Source: Candidatus Bathyarchaeota archaeon (GTDB taxonomy: Archaea > Thermoproteota > Bathyarchaeia > Bathyarchaeales > Bathycorpusculaceae). Taken from it: a stretch of DNA of 64,000 nt. Of this stretch, positions 11,562-29,065 are shown one piece after another. The stretch's first letter is position 1, and every line of letters begins with the position of its first letter. The notes under the pieces were generated by a model. That model saw nothing but the letters and a program-made list of their open reading frames with translations, was not told the origin of the DNA and did no database searches. The translations under genes were made by a program, and so were the position numbers. The DNA lies in the NCBI GenBank assembly GCA_026014615.1, contig JAOZHZ010000028.1, positions 248,001 to 312,000 of the forward strand. Reading direction: 5' to 3'.

Positions 11562-11958
11562 CTTTTTTCACGTTCCAAGTAACGTAGATACTGTCAGCGT
11601 CAAATTATAGCTTTTCCATTCTAAACCCAAACAGAACGGTTTCTCAAAACTGTTCTCACATTTAACGCAACAGCTAAAGTAAGGTGAGAAACGCACTCAA
11701 GAATCTCGCAGTTTCAGACAACGCGGTTAATCGCTCAATCGATACAGAAACCTCTTTAGGAACCCCTCTCATTGGGCTTTACTTGCCCCGTTTTGTTAGC
11801 AACTTCGGTGAGTATCTCGGGTGTTGGCAGAGGGTATGCAAAGCCACAGGCACGCCCAAATAATTATCGGTACTAATACAGGCACATCGCTTGCTAGAAT
11901 TTGGTTTTTTGTGTCACTCATCTTTTTATATTAAGAAGCTAGGTACTCGGCGATAATC

Positions 11959-13968
11959 TTGTCTGCTAACTTCAAAGTTAATTGTGGCGAGCATGAGCAT
12001 CAGCAATTACCTGAAAAGTGTACTGAAACTGTTTACGACGCCGTAACTTCCAAGACTGTTGATGAAAACGCTGGTGCAGCTCAAATCACTAAAAGAAAAA
12101 CTCGAAAGCCACGGTTACATGTTGCAAAAAAGAAAAAGCCAGTGGAGAAAAGGTTACTCTGCGAATTAGAGGAGCCAAGCGAAACCAGCGCAAACGCCAA
12201 GCATTTGTATTCATGCACTTTTTCAGACCCCTATGATATACAAAACCTCATTAGAACGAAGGCATTTTCGCCTTTTCGGAAGGTCCAGCTGAGTTTGAAA
12301 GCTAGAGACATAAAACGTGCTGGCAAAATCGACAAGCTGCTTTCCGCAGATGCCATTCGCACAAAACTTGTGCCTTACAATTTTCAGATGCAGACTGCGC
12401 TCCAAGTGATAAACGAAATGAATGGAAACGCTATCCTCGCCGACGAGGTCGGACTTGGGAAAACAATTGAGGCGGGTCTCATAATGAAAGAGTTGCTCCT
12501 GCGAGAGGAAATTAATTCCGTTCTAATTGTTTCTCCAAAGAGCCTGTTGTTGCAATGGAAAACGGAAATGCACGAAAAGTTTGGAGAAGCTTTTTCGATT
12601 GCAAATATCCCCCGTGAACACGTTGACCTGCAGACTAGCGATAGAATAATTTGTTCACATAACCTTTTAACTAGAAAATACGATCAGTTTGCAAGTCGAA
12701 TCTGGGACCTGATTGTGGTCGACGAGGCGCACACATTTAGAAACAGCAAAAGCAAAGGTCGCACTTGTCTAGAAAATCTCCGAAAGAGCCATTTCTTGTT
12801 GCTAACTGCTACGCCGTTGTGCAATAGACTTACTGATTTGTATAGTATTGTAGATTTAATTCAGCCTGGGCTTTTGGATAGTGAGCGCTCGTTTGTTTCC
12901 CGATTTGCTAAAGACACCAAAAGCCGAGTTGTACGACCAGAAGAAGTACATGCGCTAAGGCAAACCATAAGAGCCGTAATGTGTCGAACTCGAAGAGAAC
13001 AAACAGGCATCCCGTTTACCAAACGATGTGTTGATTCTAGAACACTGGAAGCAAATAAGCTGGAACGGGAATTTATTGATCAAGCAACAGAATATTTGCG
13101 AGGCATAAGCCAGAATCAGTTTAAGACGATAGAGACCTTGATGGCGGAGAATCCAACTAGACGAATCAGTGAATCCCAAAGCAGAGCAATTCTAGTTTTT
13201 CAAGCAATTTCTCTTCAGCAGTCCTTCTCAAGTTCCCCGTATGCCTCTATCGAATCGTTAACGAAAAGACAGCAACGCTTTCCCCAAGAAATGGAAGTTA
13301 CCAGTCGACTAATCGAGATGGCTGCAAAAGTTAAGAGCACAAAAATGGAGTTGCTGCGAAACGTTCTGAATGAGATGCCTACTGAACAGGCATTGATATT
13401 TTGCCTACGAAAGATCACGGTACGTAAACTAAAAGAAATGTTGAACGCGGAATTTGGGCGGGCAGAGGTTTACTTAGGCGACATGAGCCAGACAGAGAGA
13501 GATGAAGTTATAGAGAGCTTTCAGAATGGAGGAACCAAATATCTGGTTGCCACGGACGCTGCATCTGAAGGTCTTAACTTGCAGAATTGTTGTGTGTTGT
13601 TTAATTATGATTTACATTGGAACCCCATGAAAATCGAGCAACGGATAGGCCGAATCCACAGGTTCAAACAAGACCGTGATGTCACCGTCTTCAACCTAAG
13701 CGTCAAAGACACCATTGATGACTACGTGCTCCATATTCTATACCAAAAAATAGATTTGTTTACCATGACAATCGGCAAAATGGAAACCGTTCTAGCGGAA
13801 CTAAAAGAGGGCTCTCAGGATATACAAAAGACTATCGCCGAGATATTGCTCAGAAGCAACTCTCGTTTAGACATACGAAGAGAACTTGAAAAATTGGCAA
13901 CTGACCTGAATGTTTCCAAGAAGAATCAGGAATTAGCTGAAAAATTCACTGCGGGGATTCTTGGTTGA
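11959..13968 (+). CDS. SNF2/RapA-like superfamily 2 helicase
   Basis: ADEVGLGKTIEAGLIM (Walker A region), VVDEAH, LLTATP, ATDAASEGLNLQ, QRIGRIHRFKQ. Confidence 0.9.
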   Translation: MSANFKVNCGEHEHQQLPEKCTETVYDAVTSKTVDENAGAAQITKRKTRKPRLHVAKKKKPVEKRLLCELEEPSETSANAKHLYSCTFSDPYDIQNLIRTKAFSPFRKVQLSLKARDIKRAGKIDKLLSADAIRTKLVPYNFQMQTALQVINEMNGNAILADEVGLGKTIEAGLIMKELLLREEINSVLIVSPKSLLLQWKTEMHEKFGEAFSIANIPREHVDLQTSDRIICSHNLLTRKYDQFASRIWDLIVVDEAHTFRNSKSKGRTCLENLRKSHFLLLTATPLCNRLTDLYSIVDLIQPGLLDSERSFVSRFAKDTKSRVVRPEEVHALRQTIRAVMCRTRREQTGIPFTKRCVDSRTLEANKLEREFIDQATEYLRGISQNQFKTIETLMAENPTRRISESQSRAILVFQAISLQQSFSSSPYASIESLTKRQQRFPQEMEVTSRLIEMAAKVKSTKMELLRNVLNEMPTEQALIFCLRKITVRKLKEMLNAEFGRAEVYLGDMSQTERDEVIESFQNGGTKYLVATDAASEGLNLQNCCVLFNYDLHWNPMKIEQRIGRIHRFKQDRDVTVFNLSVKDTIDDYVLHILYQKIDLFTMTIGKMETVLAELKEGSQDIQKTIAEILLRSNSRLDIRRELEKLATDLNVSKKNQELAEKFTAGILG

Positions 13969-15701
13969 GCAAAAGATGCACTGACACAGAAATTCAACAA
14001 TTTGTTGAAGAATACTTCAAGTCCAAAAAGGGCACAGTAACTGAACAATCCGATGGTGTCTTCACAGTAATCTACCCCAATAAAGAGGAAACCCAAGAGT
14101 ACACTTACCTGCGTGCTGTGTCGCGGGAGAAGAATCTTCCTCTTATTTCATTGGGGAGTCCAGCGTTTCAGCAAATAGTAAACGAATGCTTAGACGATGG
14201 TGTTTTGTGCCAAGTTTCACTTAGCCCGAAAGAGGAGATTGAGATCCTGCTGATGAATCTTTTCAAGGCTTCTTCGTGTGCCTGTGAAGACTGCAAAAAA
14301 GTGACTGCAGGAGAAAAAGAGATCAGCATCTGTGTAACGCCTCACCCATGTTACCACAGAATAAACAATGCAAAAGTTGTCTCCTTAAAAATTGTAAAAA
14401 AAGAGCCCGTTAAGTATTACCAATTCTATTTCTCTGCCATATTCCGTAACAAACTACGACCAAAAAATGAAGAAACAATTCCTATACTGATAGACGAAAA
14501 AGGTAACATTGTCAGCAATGACGGTTTTAGTGATCTTGACCTCTTGAAAAACGAAGCGATAAGTGTTCAGGAACTCAAGGCTAAGGTTGACACAAAGCTC
14601 TTTGACGAATTGAAAACTGTTGCAGACCAAAAGCTGGAGTCTGTTCTTAAGCAAAAGTTGGCGCTTTTTGATTTGCCGCTTAGGAAAGAGAAAAAGTCTA
14701 AACTGAGAAGCTTTGATAGACGACTTAAGAAGGAGCGTCGTGAGCAGTTAATTTCAAGAAAGCGTAATTTTGATCAGCGCAGATGGCAAGCTAACTACGA
14801 AGCACTTCTGAAACGAGAAGAAGAATCGTTCATGACTGATATAGAAGTAAATTTCGTCAACCTGCTTGTGGTTAACACAAGTAAGGTTAGATTTGACGTT
14901 AAACTAGATAATAATTCAACCATGCACGCCTGTTTCATCTTAGGCGTGAGTCATATTCCCGAAGTTACTTGCCCTACATGCCGAAAACCCTTCTTTGAGG
15001 GCTACGCAACGGAAGATGCATTTTACGTATGCGGAAACTGCATTAGACAATCCATTGACACAGGTAAAGTTTACTCAACAAAAGCAACTCTAAAGCTCGA
15101 TGAAACATTAAATGAGTATATTGAACGAGACTCAGGCTTCATCTGCGCAGTCTGCGGAAAGAGACACAGTCGATTGCTAGAATTCAAATGCAGCCACGAT
15201 AATTCAAGCGTATGCATCCATCATTACGAACTTTGTGATATATGCGGAAGGGTTTTTTCAAAACTTAATCTTTCGTTCACCCAAGAATTTAAACGTAAAT
15301 TGTGTCCCACTCATGCTGTTGAATGCGTAGACTGTAAATCGATTATCGGCGTGGATGAGGGTAAGCTTTGCAAGGCAAGCGGCAACTGGTTCTGCAACAG
15401 CTGCATGGAGTTCTCAAAATGTTCAGTATGCCAACAAGATTACTCAACTAAATCACTGACAGACGGCAAATGTCCCGCTTGTAATAACCTAAAAGACTTA
15501 AACGATCCAACGCTCCTTCAAACAGTTCAAGATTTTGACAAGTCCGAGCACAAAAAAGCGAATTGGCTGGCAGGAAAAAACACTCTGAATACAGTTGTTG
15601 TCCGAAAAAGCCTTTTTTCAAGCGCATTGTACGTCATCGAAAACGATAAAGTCGTTTCTCAAAAGTCCCTTTCGTTCTTAAACAAATTGAAGGAGCATTA
15701 A
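13965..15701 (+). CDS. Multi-zinc-finger protein of unknown function with basic coiled-coil region
   Basis: Many CxxC pairs (CEDC; CPTC..CGNC; CAVC; CDIC; CVDC; CNSC..CSVC..CPAC). TTG start overlaps the helicase TGA stop. Confidence 0.7.
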   Translation: MSKRCTDTEIQQFVEEYFKSKKGTVTEQSDGVFTVIYPNKEETQEYTYLRAVSREKNLPLISLGSPAFQQIVNECLDDGVLCQVSLSPKEEIEILLMNLFKASSCACEDCKKVTAGEKEISICVTPHPCYHRINNAKVVSLKIVKKEPVKYYQFYFSAIFRNKLRPKNEETIPILIDEKGNIVSNDGFSDLDLLKNEAISVQELKAKVDTKLFDELKTVADQKLESVLKQKLALFDLPLRKEKKSKLRSFDRRLKKERREQLISRKRNFDQRRWQANYEALLKREEESFMTDIEVNFVNLLVVNTSKVRFDVKLDNNSTMHACFILGVSHIPEVTCPTCRKPFFEGYATEDAFYVCGNCIRQSIDTGKVYSTKATLKLDETLNEYIERDSGFICAVCGKRHSRLLEFKCSHDNSSVCIHHYELCDICGRVFSKLNLSFTQEFKRKLCPTHAVECVDCKSIIGVDEGKLCKASGNWFCNSCMEFSKCSVCQQDYSTKSLTDGKCPACNNLKDLNDPTLLQTVQDFDKSEHKKANWLAGKNTLNTVVVRKSLFSSALYVIENDKVVSQKSLSFLNKLKEH

Positions 15702-15702
15702 G

Positions 15703-16623
15703 ATGCAGTATTTAGCGTTTAAAGGGGTTTTAAAGGAAATTATTGAACAGTATCCTGACATTGATCTTTTAGAGTTTCTGTACGATAAACTGCAGATCTC
15801 TTATGGTAAGGCAGAAGAATTAGCTGCCCGAATCGAAAAAGAGTACTGCCGAAAAAACATCCCTGGCGAAAGTTCCGTAAGATTGCTTGTGGAAGAAAAT
15901 AGGAAGTCTGAGGGTCCTTCAAAAGGTAATGTTTACTCAGTTGATTGTCTTTCAGACGATGAATTTGACTATTTCATAACATGGCTTTTCAAAGAGCTAG
16001 GATACGAAATTCCGCCGGGAAAGTGCATAGTTGATTCCGGTGTCGATTTTGTGGCTGTGAAGGACAGCGAAAAAATTGCGGTTCAAGTCAGAAAGTGGCC
16101 CCTAAGTTGCAAAGTTACGGATTCCATTGTTTTGTTGTCCGAAGAAGCAAAGCTTAGGCATGGCTGCAAGAAAGCAATTGTTGTAGCCCCCACATATTTT
16201 ACTCAACAGGCAATTACGGCGGCTCAAAAGCTGAGTGTTGAACTTTGGGACCGAACTGTTCTGGATAGAAAAATTGCGGAGGCAAAAGAAAAGGCGGAAC
16301 TGGAAGTACAGTTTTGTTTCCCACCGTATGAAGGATCACTGCTTCAGAGTCTTCTTCGGCTAAGAGCGACAAAAGAATTCATTATTGAGCCCCGAGCAGG
16401 TGAAAAATATGACATACACCTGCCTGGAGTGAAATTCCCGTTGCTGACGTTTCAGGTTCGTTCTGAGACTGTCGTCCAGTGTGTTTTCAGAATTAAAGAT
16501 AATGAGCCAGTTGGGGAACTTGACGGTGAAGTGCTAATTAAAAGTCGGCGCAATAAGGCGGGTCCTGATGATTTACGCGCTTACACATTGATAGTTCAAT
16601 ATCTTGAACAATTTATAGAGTGA
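15703..16623 (+). CDS. Mrr-like (PD-(D/E)XK) restriction endonuclease-domain protein
   Basis: FKELGYEIPPGKCIVDSGVDFVAVKDSEKIAVQVRKW...AIVVAPTYFTQQAITAAQKLSVELWDRTVLD. ATG one base after the previous TAA. Confidence 0.75.
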   Translation: MQYLAFKGVLKEIIEQYPDIDLLEFLYDKLQISYGKAEELAARIEKEYCRKNIPGESSVRLLVEENRKSEGPSKGNVYSVDCLSDDEFDYFITWLFKELGYEIPPGKCIVDSGVDFVAVKDSEKIAVQVRKWPLSCKVTDSIVLLSEEAKLRHGCKKAIVVAPTYFTQQAITAAQKLSVELWDRTVLDRKIAEAKEKAELEVQFCFPPYEGSLLQSLLRLRATKEFIIEPRAGEKYDIHLPGVKFPLLTFQVRSETVVQCVFRIKDNEPVGELDGEVLIKSRRNKAGPDDLRAYTLIVQYLEQFIE

Positions 16624-17600: not shown

Positions 17601-20252
17601 TTATTTTCGTCGTTTTAGTGCAAATTCTGCGGCGGCTGCAACGATTATGATGATTGCTGTTCCTATGGCGATGTAGGTGGTTGTTGGCGTGGCACTGGTA
17701 GATGGCTGAGGGGCTTCACTGGGAGAAGGCGAAACTGGCTGCGCTGTAGTTGGAGTGGATACAGTTGGTGCTGCTGTTTCGGCTGGCGGTTGAGTTGGCA
17801 CTATAACTGCTTGGGCTGCTGTTTCTGAAACGACAAAGGAGGTGCCTGCTTCACTGCGATAGTACGATTCGGAGCCTTCGAACGTGGCGGTCACGGTATA
17901 TATCCCTGGAACTGGTGGAGTCCAATCAATAGCGTAGTTGCCCAAAGCGTTACTTGTGGCATAGCCAATGTCTTGATAGTTGCCGTTAGGATCAGTAGCA
18001 GTCAAATGCACTGGAACGCCAACTGTATCCGTTGGTTTGGGCTTCTGCATGTAAACGTACTCCATCCACGCACCCATGTAGTTGTCAGAAACTGCAGGAA
18101 CACCATGTGGAAAACGCTTTGCCTGCTCATTTTGGTTTGTGCCTGCAGCGGTATCGGTGATTCTGCCTTGGATGAGAACACTATTTCCTAAAGGTACACC
18201 CATGTTTGGCGCTGTGACAGTGGTTTCGGTTGGTCCCCTGCCGTAACAGTATAATTGATTTGAGTAACAATCAATGGCTACAAGATAACCATCTGCAATA
18301 GCATCGCCGGCAGTTGTCGGTTGTGAATCGCCAGGTGATCCTACAGCCCAAATTTCCGTTCCGTCAGTTGCGTTTATGCATCGGAGTTTTGCGCCCTTCC
18401 AATATGGTGCCCCCGTCGAGTGTTCACTGGTGGTCAAGTAGATTTTTCCGTCAGCTACAGTTACTATGATGAGGGGATAACCACCATATGGTGTTTCAAG
18501 ACCACTGTTTGCGAAGTAGTGCCACAATAAGCTTCCGTCCTTTTGATCGTAGCAATAGAGGTCTCCACCATAACCGCTCGAGTAAAGTTTGCCGTAAGCA
18601 AGAACCGTCGGCAACATGCTACCAAAACCGCCACTGTTATAGTAGTTCCATGGAGTTTCAGACTGCGTTGTCCACAACAGGTTTCCATCGTCGAGACTGT
18701 AACCCAACGACTGTCTATCCTCTTTATCCCACAGAGTGAATATGCGGGTCTCTAAATCCACGCGGGCAAACCTTAGACTAACGTTACCTGCTGGTGGTTG
18801 ATAGGTCTGCATCCATAACAGTGAACCTAATGAGGTTGGCTCCAGACTCATAGCCCACATCGTGTATGGCTCCCACCCACCAATCGTAGGAAAAGAGCCG
18901 TTCATGCCAAGTAATGTGTCACCTGTAGCACTAAGGATTGTCGCTCCTGCTGGTAGCCAGGGTATTGTTACGTTCCATGAGTATGCGTTGCTCGCGTCAA
19001 CCGTTTTCCCTACAGGCCGCCACTGATAATAGTTAGTGCTGGTATAGTCTGTTGGGTCCGTTGAACCTGTTAATTCGTGCGCGGCAGTGTTATTCCACAA
19101 AGCCAACCATTTGCCATCCGCGTTAAGTATGTATTTTAGTATCTCCCCGTTTGGACCATATACAGTGGTGCCTGTTGAAGGAACGTTTGTCAAGGTGAAT
19201 AGCCACTTTCCTGTTAAGGGGTCATAAGCTTCCCACGTGCTACCGGCAGAGCGCCATAAGTATCCGTTTGGAATGACGCCGTGTTGGTTCTGCGATTCAT
19301 AGTCAAAAAGTTGACCGAATGTTATGCCGGTGATGTTCTGTGTCCACAGTTCCTCTCCTGTACGTAAATCTACGCAGACATAGCCTCCGCCTAAGGGTTG
19401 GTCACTTAGCGGTAACTCATAGTATAGTCGTCCGTTTATGATGATTGGGTTCAGGAATCTGCATTCGTATGATGTCCCATCGTAGAATGTTACGCCGTTG
19501 ATAGGGCTGGTGGTTTCTCCTCCGACAACACCTCCGAACACATATGGCTTTGACCACAGTACGTGTGGGGTGTTAGGTGCAATGCCGTCTGGTTGGACTC
19601 TTCCAACAATTTGATTTCCAGATAGCCAGTTTGATGCTATTTTGGTCCATTGGGTGTTCTGTCCGTTTATTGGGCGTGTCCAGTATTCGGTTGGTAGCGG
19701 AGTGCTTGGGAGGTAAGAGATTTGGTCTTGTTGTACGGTGAGTGTGGCTGTTGCGTTGCTGGATAGATAAGTGTCGTTGAGGTATGGAGTGGTGTTGCCA
19801 GACATGTCTTTAGTGTTAAGAATGCCAGTTCCAGTATCCCCCGTCATTATTTGCCCGGGGAACTCAAGCGTAAAAGTGTAGGTGCCTGTTTGGTCGGGTG
19901 TGTAAAGAGCGTAGCCGCCTCCCACTGGGTCTGATGTGAAAGTTCCAAGCGTTTCTTTGGCGCCGTCAGGTTTTGTGACTTCCACGGTGAATACCCATCT
20001 GTCACCGGCATAACCGGCGGCAGTGGGTGGAACTTGGTTAAGCCAGAACACCAAAGTGGTTTGTTGGTTGACCCCTACTGGGTTGGGCGATAGTGAAAGG
20101 TAGGCGTAGGTTGGGATGTTCCATGCGGGTGTATGGGCGTCAGCTACTGGAATGAGTACAGTAAAAGCAGAAATAGCTAACAGCAGAAACAAAGCAATCG
20201 CAAACACTTTTTGTTTTCTTTGAATTTTCAGTTTTTCAAATTTTATGGTCAT
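17601..20252 (-). CDS. Surface protein with PQQ-like beta-propeller and C-terminal membrane anchor (paralogue 1)
   Basis: Signal peptide, GELYCYDQKDGSLLWHYFANSG / VDLRTGEELW propeller motifs, C-terminal TM plus KRRK. Confidence 0.8.
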   Translation of the reverse strand: MTIKFEKLKIQRKQKVFAIALFLLLAISAFTVLIPVADAHTPAWNIPTYAYLSLSPNPVGVNQQTTLVFWLNQVPPTAAGYAGDRWVFTVEVTKPDGAKETLGTFTSDPVGGGYALYTPDQTGTYTFTLEFPGQIMTGDTGTGILNTKDMSGNTTPYLNDTYLSSNATATLTVQQDQISYLPSTPLPTEYWTRPINGQNTQWTKIASNWLSGNQIVGRVQPDGIAPNTPHVLWSKPYVFGGVVGGETTSPINGVTFYDGTSYECRFLNPIIINGRLYYELPLSDQPLGGGYVCVDLRTGEELWTQNITGITFGQLFDYESQNQHGVIPNGYLWRSAGSTWEAYDPLTGKWLFTLTNVPSTGTTVYGPNGEILKYILNADGKWLALWNNTAAHELTGSTDPTDYTSTNYYQWRPVGKTVDASNAYSWNVTIPWLPAGATILSATGDTLLGMNGSFPTIGGWEPYTMWAMSLEPTSLGSLLWMQTYQPPAGNVSLRFARVDLETRIFTLWDKEDRQSLGYSLDDGNLLWTTQSETPWNYYNSGGFGSMLPTVLAYGKLYSSGYGGDLYCYDQKDGSLLWHYFANSGLETPYGGYPLIIVTVADGKIYLTTSEHSTGAPYWKGAKLRCINATDGTEIWAVGSPGDSQPTTAGDAIADGYLVAIDCYSNQLYCYGRGPTETTVTAPNMGVPLGNSVLIQGRITDTAAGTNQNEQAKRFPHGVPAVSDNYMGAWMEYVYMQKPKPTDTVGVPVHLTATDPNGNYQDIGYATSNALGNYAIDWTPPVPGIYTVTATFEGSESYYRSEAGTSFVVSETAAQAVIVPTQPPAETAAPTVSTPTTAQPVSPSPSEAPQPSTSATPTTTYIAIGTAIIIIVAAAAEFALKRRK

Positions 20253-22667: not shown

Positions 22668-25184
22668 TTATTTTCGTCTTCTAAGCAGAAGCGCTGCTGC
22701 CACCACTATAATCACGACTGCTACACCGACGGCAATGTATGTCGTTGTGGGCGCTGCACTGCCAGGCGGTTGCTCTGCCTGTACTGGGGATGATGTGACA
22801 GCTGGAGCAGCTTGTGCCTCAGTCATTCCAACGGCGGTTTCAGCTGAAGATGCAAAGTACGAGCCGGAACCCTCGAATGTAGCGATAACTGTGTATTTTC
22901 CAGGGATTTCTGGTGTCCAAAGATAGCTGTAGAAGCCAGTTATGTCCGTTGTTGTTCTGCCAATGGGTACAAAGTTGCCGTTGGGGTCAACAGTGTCAAG
23001 CGTTACCTCAACGCCTTTGGCGTCTAATGGCATTGTGTGTTGTTTGTATACGTACTCCATCCATGCGGTCATGCTTTCGTCAGCTACGGCAGCTACACCG
23101 TTTGCACCTGGAGATTCATCAATCACTGTACCTTCGATAAGAACGCTGTCGCCCAGAACTGAGACTTTAGGCGCCGCTGAAACGGTGGTTGCAGTTTCGC
23201 CTTTGCCGAAGCAATATACTCTGTTGTCCATGCCGTTGAGCGTAACCATGTAACCGTCAGCGAAAGCTATCGTGTTCCAAACTCCCGTAATTTCCCAGAG
23301 TTGCTGTCCTGAATTGGCGTCAACACAGTACATGGACCATCCCTTGTACAGCGGTTGCGTATGCGAGTGCTCTCCAGTGGTAACATACATCTTTCCGTCA
23401 GCAAAATAAACGCCTGAGCTCGGCCAATATTCGTATGGTCCTTCAAGTCCATTCTTGCCAGTTCTCCACGTCCAAAGGTGTTCCCCAGTCTTAATGTCGT
23501 AACAGTATACTCCCGCATAGCCGTCAAAGTAGAGCTTATGGTCGTAAATGGTGGACGTACGGTCATACATCATGAAATCGTCTGCACGCTCTGTTGGACC
23601 CCACACTTTTTCGCCAGTATCGATGTCAAAGCCATACCACTGCATCGTTTCCTTCACTTTAAGAACGAAAACGCCGTCTTCTACGCTTCCAAGGTCACCT
23701 TCAAACTGCAGTGTCATGTTCTCTGAAGGCCCTATCGGTGGTGTTGTTAACTTCTTGTTGAACAGTAGTTTTCCTTCGTTGCCGGGCTCGGTACTTAGTG
23801 CCCACACCGTGTATTCTCCCTGTAACGCTCTGGCGCCAAAGCGTTGGAATCCTGAGCCGCCAATTACGCGGTCCTCAAACACTCCGATCAGGTTGCCTTC
23901 TAATCCATAAGGTATTGTGACGTTCCATTCGTAGGCATCACTGCTGTTGACGGTCTTGCCGACGGGTCTCCATTGCCATTGGCCGGTTCCGCTGGTTCCT
24001 CCGAGCAATTCAAACGGTTTTGTTGTATTCCACAGTGCCATCCAGTTGTCTTCTACGTTCACAACGTAAATTAATGGTTCACCGCTTGGACCGACAGCTG
24101 ATACTCCGGTAGGTCTTTCTGTAACGGTAAAGAGCCATTCTCCTGTGAATGGGTCATAGAAGCTGTAGGCGGGAACGTTGGGTCCTATTTCGAAGGTTGT
24201 GATGGTTCCAGAAGCAAGCAAGTATGGAATTGTTCCGTGTTGGTTAGGTGATTCATAGTCGTAGATAGCGCCCTGAGTTATGCTAGTGCGATTCATGAAC
24301 AGCAGTTCCTCTCCAGTTCGTAAATCAACACACATTGTTCCGCGAGTTTGAGGTTGGTCGCTTCTGCCCACTCTGTAGTATAGGCGTCCTTGCATGATTG
24401 AAACTGGTACCCATTTACGTTCGTATGAACTGCCCTCATAGTAGCCTATGGCACCATGTTCACCTCCAGTGAGGCCACCGAAGTCCTGCGGTTTTGTCCA
24501 AACTATGTGCGCTGTTTCAGGCCCCTTAGTGTTCAGGTTTTTTCTTCCGTCGTTTAGCCAGTTCCCGGTGATTTGAGACCACTCTGTTAGCGAGGCATCG
24601 ACTGGGCGTGTCCAGTAACCTGTTGGGGGACCTTCACTGGGTGTTACTTGCAATTGTTCTTCCTGAACAGTGACTGTGTCGGGTAGACTCTCGCTTGGCA
24701 ACAAGATGTCGCCAACATAAACTGCGCTGTAAGGGGTGCCTGTCATGGGGTTGATTGGTTCGCCAGTGTATGTGTGTCCGGGGACTTTGGCGACAAATGA
24801 GTATGTACCTATTTGGTCAGGTGTATAGACAGCGTAGGCGCCGCCCACTGGGTCAGATGTGAAGGGCCCTATCGTTTCTTTGTCCCCGTCTGGTTTGGTG
24901 ACTTCCACTGTGAAGGTAAATCGGTCTCCGTAAGCGCCCTCTGCAGTTCGCGGCAAATAGTCGCGCCAGAACACAATAAAAATGTCTTGTCCGATGCCTA
25001 TTGGATCAGGATAAGCAGCGATGTAAGTCCATGTGGGAATTTCCCACGGCGGGTCATGAGCACTGGCAACGGGTACACCCACAGCAAACATGGAGAAAGA
25101 CAGCAGCAGAATTAACATCAGCGTTTTCAGGTTTTGTTTTTTATATTTTCCTCTCGAAATTGAGTTTTCATGTAGCTTATACAA
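22668..25184 (-). CDS. Surface protein with PQQ-like beta-propeller and C-terminal membrane anchor (paralogue 2)
   Basis: Strong similarity to 17601-20252 (TVEVTKPDGDKETIGPFTSDPVGGAYAVYTPDQIGTYSF). Confidence 0.8.
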   Translation of the reverse strand: MYKLHENSISRGKYKKQNLKTLMLILLLSFSMFAVGVPVASAHDPPWEIPTWTYIAAYPDPIGIGQDIFIVFWRDYLPRTAEGAYGDRFTFTVEVTKPDGDKETIGPFTSDPVGGAYAVYTPDQIGTYSFVAKVPGHTYTGEPINPMTGTPYSAVYVGDILLPSESLPDTVTVQEEQLQVTPSEGPPTGYWTRPVDASLTEWSQITGNWLNDGRKNLNTKGPETAHIVWTKPQDFGGLTGGEHGAIGYYEGSSYERKWVPVSIMQGRLYYRVGRSDQPQTRGTMCVDLRTGEELLFMNRTSITQGAIYDYESPNQHGTIPYLLASGTITTFEIGPNVPAYSFYDPFTGEWLFTVTERPTGVSAVGPSGEPLIYVVNVEDNWMALWNTTKPFELLGGTSGTGQWQWRPVGKTVNSSDAYEWNVTIPYGLEGNLIGVFEDRVIGGSGFQRFGARALQGEYTVWALSTEPGNEGKLLFNKKLTTPPIGPSENMTLQFEGDLGSVEDGVFVLKVKETMQWYGFDIDTGEKVWGPTERADDFMMYDRTSTIYDHKLYFDGYAGVYCYDIKTGEHLWTWRTGKNGLEGPYEYWPSSGVYFADGKMYVTTGEHSHTQPLYKGWSMYCVDANSGQQLWEITGVWNTIAFADGYMVTLNGMDNRVYCFGKGETATTVSAAPKVSVLGDSVLIEGTVIDESPGANGVAAVADESMTAWMEYVYKQHTMPLDAKGVEVTLDTVDPNGNFVPIGRTTTDITGFYSYLWTPEIPGKYTVIATFEGSGSYFASSAETAVGMTEAQAAPAVTSSPVQAEQPPGSAAPTTTYIAVGVAVVIIVVAAALLLRRRK

Positions 25185-28276: not shown

Positions 28277-29065
28277 ATGTCTGAACATAAACCAGAGTGG
28301 CCTGAACCAGGCGACCTCGTAATTGCCACCATCGAAAGCGTAATGGATTACGGAGCCTACGCTAACCTAGACGAATATGGCAAACGCGGTTTTCTTCACA
28401 TTTCCGAGATTTCAAGCGCCCGCATAAGAAAAATCCGCGACTACGTCCGCGAAAAACAAAAAATGGTTCTTAAAGTTCTACGCGTTAACGTCGGAAAAGG
28501 GCATATTGACTTGTCACTTAGGCGGGTTACCAAACGCGAACGAATCGAAAAAATTAAAGCTTGGAAAAAGGACCGAAAAGCTGAAGTGCTTCTGCATGCG
28601 GTGGCTGAAAAAGTCGGTTTATCCAAAGATGAAGTCTACGAAAAGGCGGGGGTTATACTTGAAGAACGATACGGGTTATACGAAGGCTTCGAGAAGGCAA
28701 TTAAAGACGGCCCAGAAGCCCTAACTAAACTTGACATACCAGAAGACATCGCCCAAGCCTTTGCACAAATTGCTGAAGAACGCATCAAAATTAAAATGGT
28801 TAAAGTTAGAGGAACCTTTGAAGTCCGTTGTCCAAAACCTAACGGCGTGAAATGCGTCCAAAACGCGTTCATTGATGCCAAGAAGGCGCAGAAAGCCCGA
28901 GATGCAAAAGTTGAGTTCAGTGTGATTGCGGCTCCTCGATATAGCATGGAAGTTTTAGCGGACAATTGGAAACGTGCCGAGGATGTTCTGGAGAAAGTCG
29001 GTCAAACTGTTGTTGCAAATATTACTAAGGCAGGCGGAAAGGGCTCCTTCAAAAGAGAGAAATAA
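28277..29065 (+). CDS. eif2a: Translation initiation factor aIF2 alpha subunit
   Basis: S1 domain PEPGDLVIATIESVMDYGAYANLDEYGKRGFLHISEIS...VGKGHIDLSLRRVTKRER. Confidence 0.95.
   Translation: MSEHKPEWPEPGDLVIATIESVMDYGAYANLDEYGKRGFLHISEISSARIRKIRDYVREKQKMVLKVLRVNVGKGHIDLSLRRVTKRERIEKIKAWKKDRKAEVLLHAVAEKVGLSKDEVYEKAGVILEERYGLYEGFEKAIKDGPEALTKLDIPEDIAQAFAQIAEERIKIKMVKVRGTFEVRCPKPNGVKCVQNAFIDAKKAQKARDAKVEFSVIAAPRYSMEVLADNWKRAEDVLEKVGQTVVANITKAGGKGSFKREK

What the first reader, a model, noticed from the sequence alone, without database searches (positions are those of the whole stretch)
11959..16623. Candidate undescribed three-gene system: SNF2 helicase, multi-zinc-finger protein, Mrr-like nuclease
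Seen directly: three + strand genes with no gaps. The TGA stop of gene 1 overlaps the TTG start of gene 2, and gene 3 starts one base after gene 2's TAA. Neighbours on both sides are on the minus strand, so the unit is self-contained. A TATA-like run (TTTTTATATT, about 11924-11933) lies about 25 nt upstream of the TTG, consistent with leaderless transcription. Established knowledge: SNF2-type helicases coupled to nucleases recur in prokaryotic defence systems (e.g. DISARM's DrmD), and Mrr-family PD-(D/E)XK proteins are type IV or modification-dependent restriction enzymes. Inference: the 578-aa protein with at least 5 CxxC clusters and a basic coiled coil could be the recognition or scaffold subunit. 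None of DISARM's other components (DrmA/DrmB/DrmC or a methyltransferase) is adjacent, so this is not a standard DISARM locus.
Basis: partly seen in the sequence, partly recalled or inferred. Interest (0 to 1): 0.8.

Follow-up and report, generated by a model that had tools for sequence, protein, structure and literature searches.

The report
Split RapA helicase with dead nuclease
Three always-linked genes in an uncultured archaeon encode a DNA motor protein split into two pieces (one carrying added zinc modules) and a nuclease-like partner that has lost its cutting residues; related gene sets, some with an intact nuclease, occur in other archaea and on plasmids of salt-loving archaea, so this looks like an uncatalogued, probably defence-derived, archaeal system.

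Summary
The three genes are real, adjacent and a conserved unit. Every genome found with gene 2 (26 besides this one, all in one sister genus of Bathyarchaeia) carries all three in the same order, while flanking genes differ. (1) The 'zinc-finger protein' is not only an adaptor: its first ~330 residues fold like the C-terminal half of RapA (top five PDB fold hits are all RapA), and relatives match the C-terminus of a single-chain SNF2 protein. Genes 1+2 are therefore a RapA-type Swi2/Snf2 ATPase split in two, with a zinc tail added. (2) The 'Mrr-like nuclease' has lost the D...(E/Q)xK catalytic set in all 27 Bathyarchaeia copies yet is under purifying selection, so it is probably a binding or structural subunit. 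The same triad occurs in Nitrososphaeria and on three haloarchaeal plasmids; the nuclease is intact in two nitrososphaerial genomes and one plasmid, degenerate in two plasmids. Patchy distribution, plasmid carriage and two-gene relatives beside BREX-related genes suggest a restriction/defence origin. In Bathyarchaeia it is near-fixed (26/32) with no defence island found, so its present role is unproven. PADLOC has no model for gene 2; the literature searched does not describe the system.

The parts
11923..11930 (+). TATA box (TTTTTATA), 28 nt upstream of the TTG start of gene 1
   Evidence: same 8-mer upstream of gene 1 in 10 of 11 loci compared
11959..13968 (+). gene H: Swi2/Snf2 ATPase core of RapA/DrmD type, 669 aa
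   Evidence: Pfam SNF2-rel_dom and Helicase_C; intact DEVGLGKT (aa 162), DEAH (255), QRIGRIHR (561); covers RapA model 129-644 of 959
13965..15701 (+). gene Z: split-off RapA-like C-terminal half plus zinc-knuckle tail, 578 aa
   Evidence: fold search: RapA as top five hits, best E 7.6e-07; profile match to other triad Z proteins E 2.6e-16
13965..14954 (+). Z residues 1-330: RapA-like alpha+beta domains with two long coiled-coil helices
   Evidence: model secondary structure; the homologous region of other triad Z proteins matches residues 698-991 of a 994-aa single-chain SNF2 protein, E 3.2e-10
14970..15320 (+). Z residues 336-452: conserved zinc-knuckle block
   Evidence: invariant C336, C339, C356, C359, C394, C397, C409, C417, H420, C424, C427, C447, H450
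15321..15698 (+). Z residues 453-578: C-terminal domain kept here, absent from the other Bathyarchaeia copies (partial in G101)
   Evidence: alignment; homologous to Z C-termini of nitrososphaerial and haloarchaeal triads, blastp E 4.5e-07 to 3.6e-04
15703..16623 (+). gene M: degenerate Mrr-type PD-(D/E)XK protein, 306 aa
   Evidence: Mrr_cat; best convincing fold hit AF1548 1y88; homologous to an intact nitrososphaerial Mrr, E 4.9e-13
16045..16092 (+). former catalytic stretch of M: D115...Q128-V-R130 in place of D...QxK
   Evidence: no copy of 27 has D plus D/E/Q plus K together
16300..16620 (+). M residues 200-306: C-terminal domain of the Bathyarchaeia copies, most conserved part of M
   Evidence: 15 of 26 invariant columns; mean majority frequency 0.68 versus 0.58 for the Mrr domain

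Best explanation
Shown: genes 1-3 are one unit. Genes 1 and 2 together rebuild a RapA-type Swi2/Snf2 ATPase that is split into a core (H) and a C-terminal half fused to zinc knuckles (Z). Gene 3 (M) is an Mrr-type PD-(D/E)XK protein whose catalytic set is gone in Bathyarchaeia but present in three of five other archaeal triads. Inferred: H+Z form a double-stranded DNA translocase; the zinc array and M provide recognition or docking on DNA. In relatives with an intact nuclease it acts as a restriction-like defence against foreign DNA (translocation plus cleavage). In this organism the nuclease is dead, so the complex acts without cutting: it recognises certain DNA or DNA-protein complexes and uses ATP-driven translocation to strip, remodel or block them (exclusion or silencing of foreign DNA, or a domesticated form of that role).
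For: Strict triad in 27/27 genomes with non-conserved flanks. Split RapA: RapA only, best E 7.6e-07; next other hit E 0.43; E 3.2e-10 to a single-chain SNF2 C-terminus; H stops at position 644 of the 959-position RapA model. Wider triads with intact D...QAK/QVK: G414 and Halocatena, G625; the last is homologous to the Bathyarchaeia M, E 4.9e-13. Patchy in Nitrososphaeria (3 of 250, one of them a pair without M) and carried on haloarchaeal plasmids. Haloarchaeal two-gene forms often lie beside DUF1156/DUF499 genes, components of BREX-related defence (PMC12839542). M dead in 27/27 but dN/dS 0.17-0.37 in close pairs. H motifs intact and H dN/dS 0.01-0.09.
Against: In Bathyarchaeia the locus is near-fixed in one genus (26/32), and of the ten flanking genes scanned three gave matches, to generic helicases or a desulfurase rather than a defence island, which is unlike a typical defence system. 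No phage data exist. The Z model is of low to middling confidence overall (mean pLDDT 58), although its RapA-like part is mostly 70-88. Direct profile comparison of Bathyarchaeia Z with E. coli RapA by sequence gave nothing significant.
Confidence: 0.5

Rival explanations
1. Housekeeping transcription or chromatin factor: the split RapA with zinc knuckles frees or recycles RNA polymerase, or remodels archaeal chromatin, and M is a DNA-binding subunit.
For: Z folds like RapA, an RNA-polymerase recycling factor. In one genus it is near-fixed, H evolves slowly (mean identity 0.76 against 0.70 for aIF2alpha), and no defence island was seen. Some weak fold hits of M are RNA polymerase subunit Rpb5.
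Against: RapA-type architecture is also that of the defence helicases BrxHII and the BREX-related helicases (PMC12839542). Relatives are patchy, sit on plasmids and some keep an intact nuclease. Four genomes of the genus at over 90% completeness lack the triad, so it is dispensable. Z and M evolve fast.
Confidence: 0.27
2. Active modification-dependent (type IV-like) restriction system in this organism, with M cutting despite K to R.
For: D115 and Q128 survive in the window copy; M has Mrr-type fold matches including MspJI and AspBHI.
Against: No copy of 27 keeps D, D/E/Q and K together; the middle position is mostly L and the lysine position mostly R; the Mrr domain is the less conserved of M's two main domains.
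Confidence: 0.1
3. DNA repair or replication-fork helicase complex of this genus, unrelated to foreign DNA.
For: SNF2 ATPases and zinc proteins are common in repair (general knowledge); inheritance within the genus is at least partly vertical (distance correlation with aIF2alpha 0.49-0.58).
Against: As for the housekeeping rival: plasmid carriage and patchiness of relatives; no other gene is conserved beside it.
Confidence: 0.1

Closest known systems
RapA (bacterial RNA-polymerase-associated Swi2/Snf2 ATPase)
   Same: SNF2 core in H; the C-terminal alpha+beta domains with coiled-coil insert match Z by fold
   Different: split into two proteins, zinc knuckles added, Mrr-like partner, H below the RapA family cut-off (174 of 576 bits)
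BrxHII / BREX-related (DUF499, 'Hma') helicases
   Same: RapA-like architecture (PMC12839542); the haloarchaeal split pair related to H-Z often lies beside DUF1156/DUF499 genes
   Different: no DUF499 ATPase or methyltransferase belongs to the triad; helicase split; separate Mrr protein
DISARM DrmD
   Same: best family score of H (247 bits)
   Different: far under the cut-off of 950; no other gene is conserved with the triad
Mrr / type IV restriction endonucleases
   Same: Mrr_cat domain in M; intact in some relatives
   Different: catalytic set lost here; constant partner of a split helicase
Zorya ZorD (SNF2 helicase with Mrr-like domain)
   Same: H and M both score against ZorD1 models
   Different: separate genes; no conserved ZorA/B/C; H is 81 of the 1500 bits required

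Membership tests
DISARM | DrmD above family cut-off | tested here: not met
   247 of 950 and 225 of 610 bits
DISARM | DrmA/DrmB/DrmC and methyltransferase at the locus | tested here: not met
   only H, Z and M are constant in 19 loci; neighbours were not scanned one by one with Drm models
RapA family | SNF2 core followed by RapA C-terminal domains | tested here: met
   met, but split over two genes
RapA family | sequence score above the RapA equivalog cut-off | tested here: not met
   174 of 576 bits
RapA family | binding to RNA polymerase | not testable with these tools
   needs a pull-down
BREX-related (DUF499/Hma) systems | DUF499 ATPase plus DUF1156 methyltransferase plus helicase | tested here: not met
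   no gene besides H, Z and M is conserved at the Bathyarchaeia locus; DUF1156/DUF499 genes seen beside the haloarchaeal two-gene relatives
Mrr/type IV restriction | intact PD-(D/E)XK catalytic set | tested here: not met
   0 of 27 Bathyarchaeia copies; met in G414, Halocatena and G625 relatives
Zorya | ZorD equivalog score and ZorA/ZorB genes | tested here: not met
   81 of 1500 bits; no conserved neighbours
catalogued defence systems (PADLOC 2.0.0) | a model that fits gene 2 | tested here: not met
   no PADLOC match for Z up to E = 1

The most novel reading that the evidence does not exclude
In Bathyarchaeia a nuclease-armed restriction system has been turned into a non-cutting, multi-subunit DNA-translocase complex: an archaeal remodelling or silencing machine built from a split RapA, zinc knuckles and a dead nuclease.
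Probability: 0.3. Interest if true: 0.85.

Novelty: new variant of a known kind. Interest (0 to 1): 0.62.

Why it matters
It adds an uncatalogued gene system found in three distant archaeal groups and shows a RapA-type motor split into two genes. Because the same triad exists with intact and with dead nucleases, it offers natural comparisons for asking how restriction systems change into non-cutting DNA-handling complexes.

Tried and rejected
DISARM, RapA, DpdE and ZorD membership rejected by curated scores. Viral carriage: three IMG/VR scans found no triad relative; the few SNF2 hits are 23-37% identical. Misbinning of the window contig: aIF2alpha alone was ambiguous because of two copies, but Lhr on the same contig is 82-88% identical to five of the six other g1 genomes (77% to the sixth) against 76-78% for g5, so the contig is very probably genuinely g1. 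Lateral gain by g1: the rooted H tree nests the window copy in g5, but the stem to the outgroup is 3 changes per site and the nearby forks are open; retention of the Z C-terminus argues for an old copy; left open. Direct RapA-to-Z sequence profile match: not significant. The apparent match of G101 Z to residue 548 is partly out of gene: its reading frame stops near residue 500 and M starts there. Weak fold hits of M to integrase complexes had low TM-scores and were not used.

Full report
Observation. The three ORFs, the TTGA overlap, the one-base gap and the opposite-strand neighbours are as described. Gene 1 is an SNF2 ATPase with intact motifs. Gene 2 has 9 CxxC knuckles and no Pfam family above cut-off. 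Gene 3 carries an Mrr_cat domain. The TATA run is at 11923-11932, and TTTTTATA is found upstream of gene 1 in 10 of 11 loci compared, so a promoter with a short or no leader is well supported.

Conservation. The window lies in a Bathyarchaeia MAG (relatives are named Bathyarchaeota). Gene 2 was found in 27 of 257 class genomes: this one and 26 of the 32 genomes of one other genus (g5) of the same family. All 27 carry H, Z and M in the same order; in the 91 genomes of the family, H at E 1e-30 is found only in those same 27. Mean identities within the set are H 0.76, Z 0.55, M 0.46, against aIF2alpha 0.70, and the H, Z and M distance matrices agree with each other (r 0.82-0.90) better than with aIF2alpha (0.49-0.58). 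In 19 loci with flanks only H, Z and M are constant; other neighbours recur mainly within sub-groups. Four genomes of the genus that are over 90% complete lack the unit, so it is dispensable.

Gene 2 is half of a helicase. The AlphaFold model of Z (mean pLDDT 58; residues 10-70, 140-180 and 210-310 mostly 70-88) has an alpha-beta domain, a beta sheet and two long helices inserted before the last strands. Foldseek against the PDB returned RapA as hits 1-5 (E 7.6e-07 to 5.9e-03) and nothing else below E 0.4. H covers positions 129-644 of the 959-position RapA model; Z residues 1-330 are the size of the missing remainder. The Z of other archaeal triads, homologous to this one (E 2.6e-16), aligns with residues 698-991 of a 994-residue single-chain SNF2 protein from the same phylum (E 3.2e-10). 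Direct sequence comparison with E. coli RapA was not significant. PMC12839542 describes the same kind of C-terminal domains (an inactive REase-like domain, then a sheet with a coiled-coil insert) in RapA, BrxHII and the BREX-related helicases.

Wider family. tblastn against plasmids found Z-like zinc regions in haloarchaea. Halorhabdus tiamatea pHTIA, Haloferax lucentense pSVX82-3 and Halocatena salina carry H, a long zinc-array Z (1095, 1245 and 676 aa; 38, 48 and 16 CxxC) and an Mrr-like gene. Further haloarchaeal plasmids (nine inspected), a cyanobacterial and an alphaproteobacterial plasmid carry H plus a downstream partner of about 280-400 aa without an adjacent Mrr gene annotated; the haloarchaeal partners are homologous to the first part of Z (E 1e-38) and often lie beside DUF1156 and DUF499 genes. 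In the class of G414, 3 of 250 genomes matched, one of them a pair without M.

The nuclease. D...(E/Q)xK is intact in G414 (GDQGGD...QAK), G625 (GDQGGD...QVK) and Halocatena (GDQGVD...QAK), degenerate in Halorhabdus and Haloferax lucentense, and absent as a set in all 27 Bathyarchaeia copies. M of this lineage is homologous to the intact G625 protein (E 4.9e-13). In close genome pairs dN/dS is 0.01-0.09 for H, 0.06-0.20 for Z and 0.17-0.37 for M (two H pairs could not be estimated), so M is kept as a protein although the active site is not. Its most conserved part is a C-terminal domain absent from the short intact relatives.

The C-terminus of Z. Residues 453-578 of the window Z are homologous to the Z C-termini of the other triads (E 4.5e-07 to 3.6e-04), missing from the other Bathyarchaeia copies aligned and partly present in G101. 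The window copy is thus the most ancestral form seen in Bathyarchaeia. That a domain kept by triads with an intact nuclease is lost in most Bathyarchaeia copies, where the nuclease is degenerate, is suggestive only: the window copy and the two haloarchaeal degenerate copies keep it.

Reading. The best account is a split RapA-type translocase with zinc-based recognition and an Mrr partner, of restriction/defence origin, working without cutting in this organism. The anatomy I hold at about 0.9; the function at about 0.5. A transcription or chromatin role is the main rival (0.27). Absence of gene 2 from PADLOC and of the system from the papers found supports novelty within those sources only; DefenseFinder and haloarchaeal chromosomes could not be searched.

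Noticed in passing
L096 3356-7078 and 13746-14639; L097 4256-8047 and 14282-15178: Two haloarchaeal triads share a larger cassette: a PbeA-like DEAD helicase and a ~280-aa protein on the opposite strand upstream, and a ~298-aa protein downstream.
   Followed up: partly
L099, L100, L101, L102, L104, L105, L107, L108: Haloarchaeal H plus partner pairs lie near DUF1156 methyltransferase and/or DUF499 ATPase genes, i.e. BREX-related loci with a split helicase.
   Followed up: partly
window 28277-29065 and G000 contig C17 426519-427304: Two aIF2alpha copies in this genome, 69% identical; several relatives also have two.
   Followed up: no
window 17601-20252 and 22668-25184: Two related large secreted or membrane-anchored proteins in near-tandem; one neighbour of the triad in G101 belongs to the same cluster.
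   Followed up: no
L064 8988-10490: G101 Z stops near residue 500: an intermediate stage in the loss of the Z C-terminal domain.
   Followed up: yes
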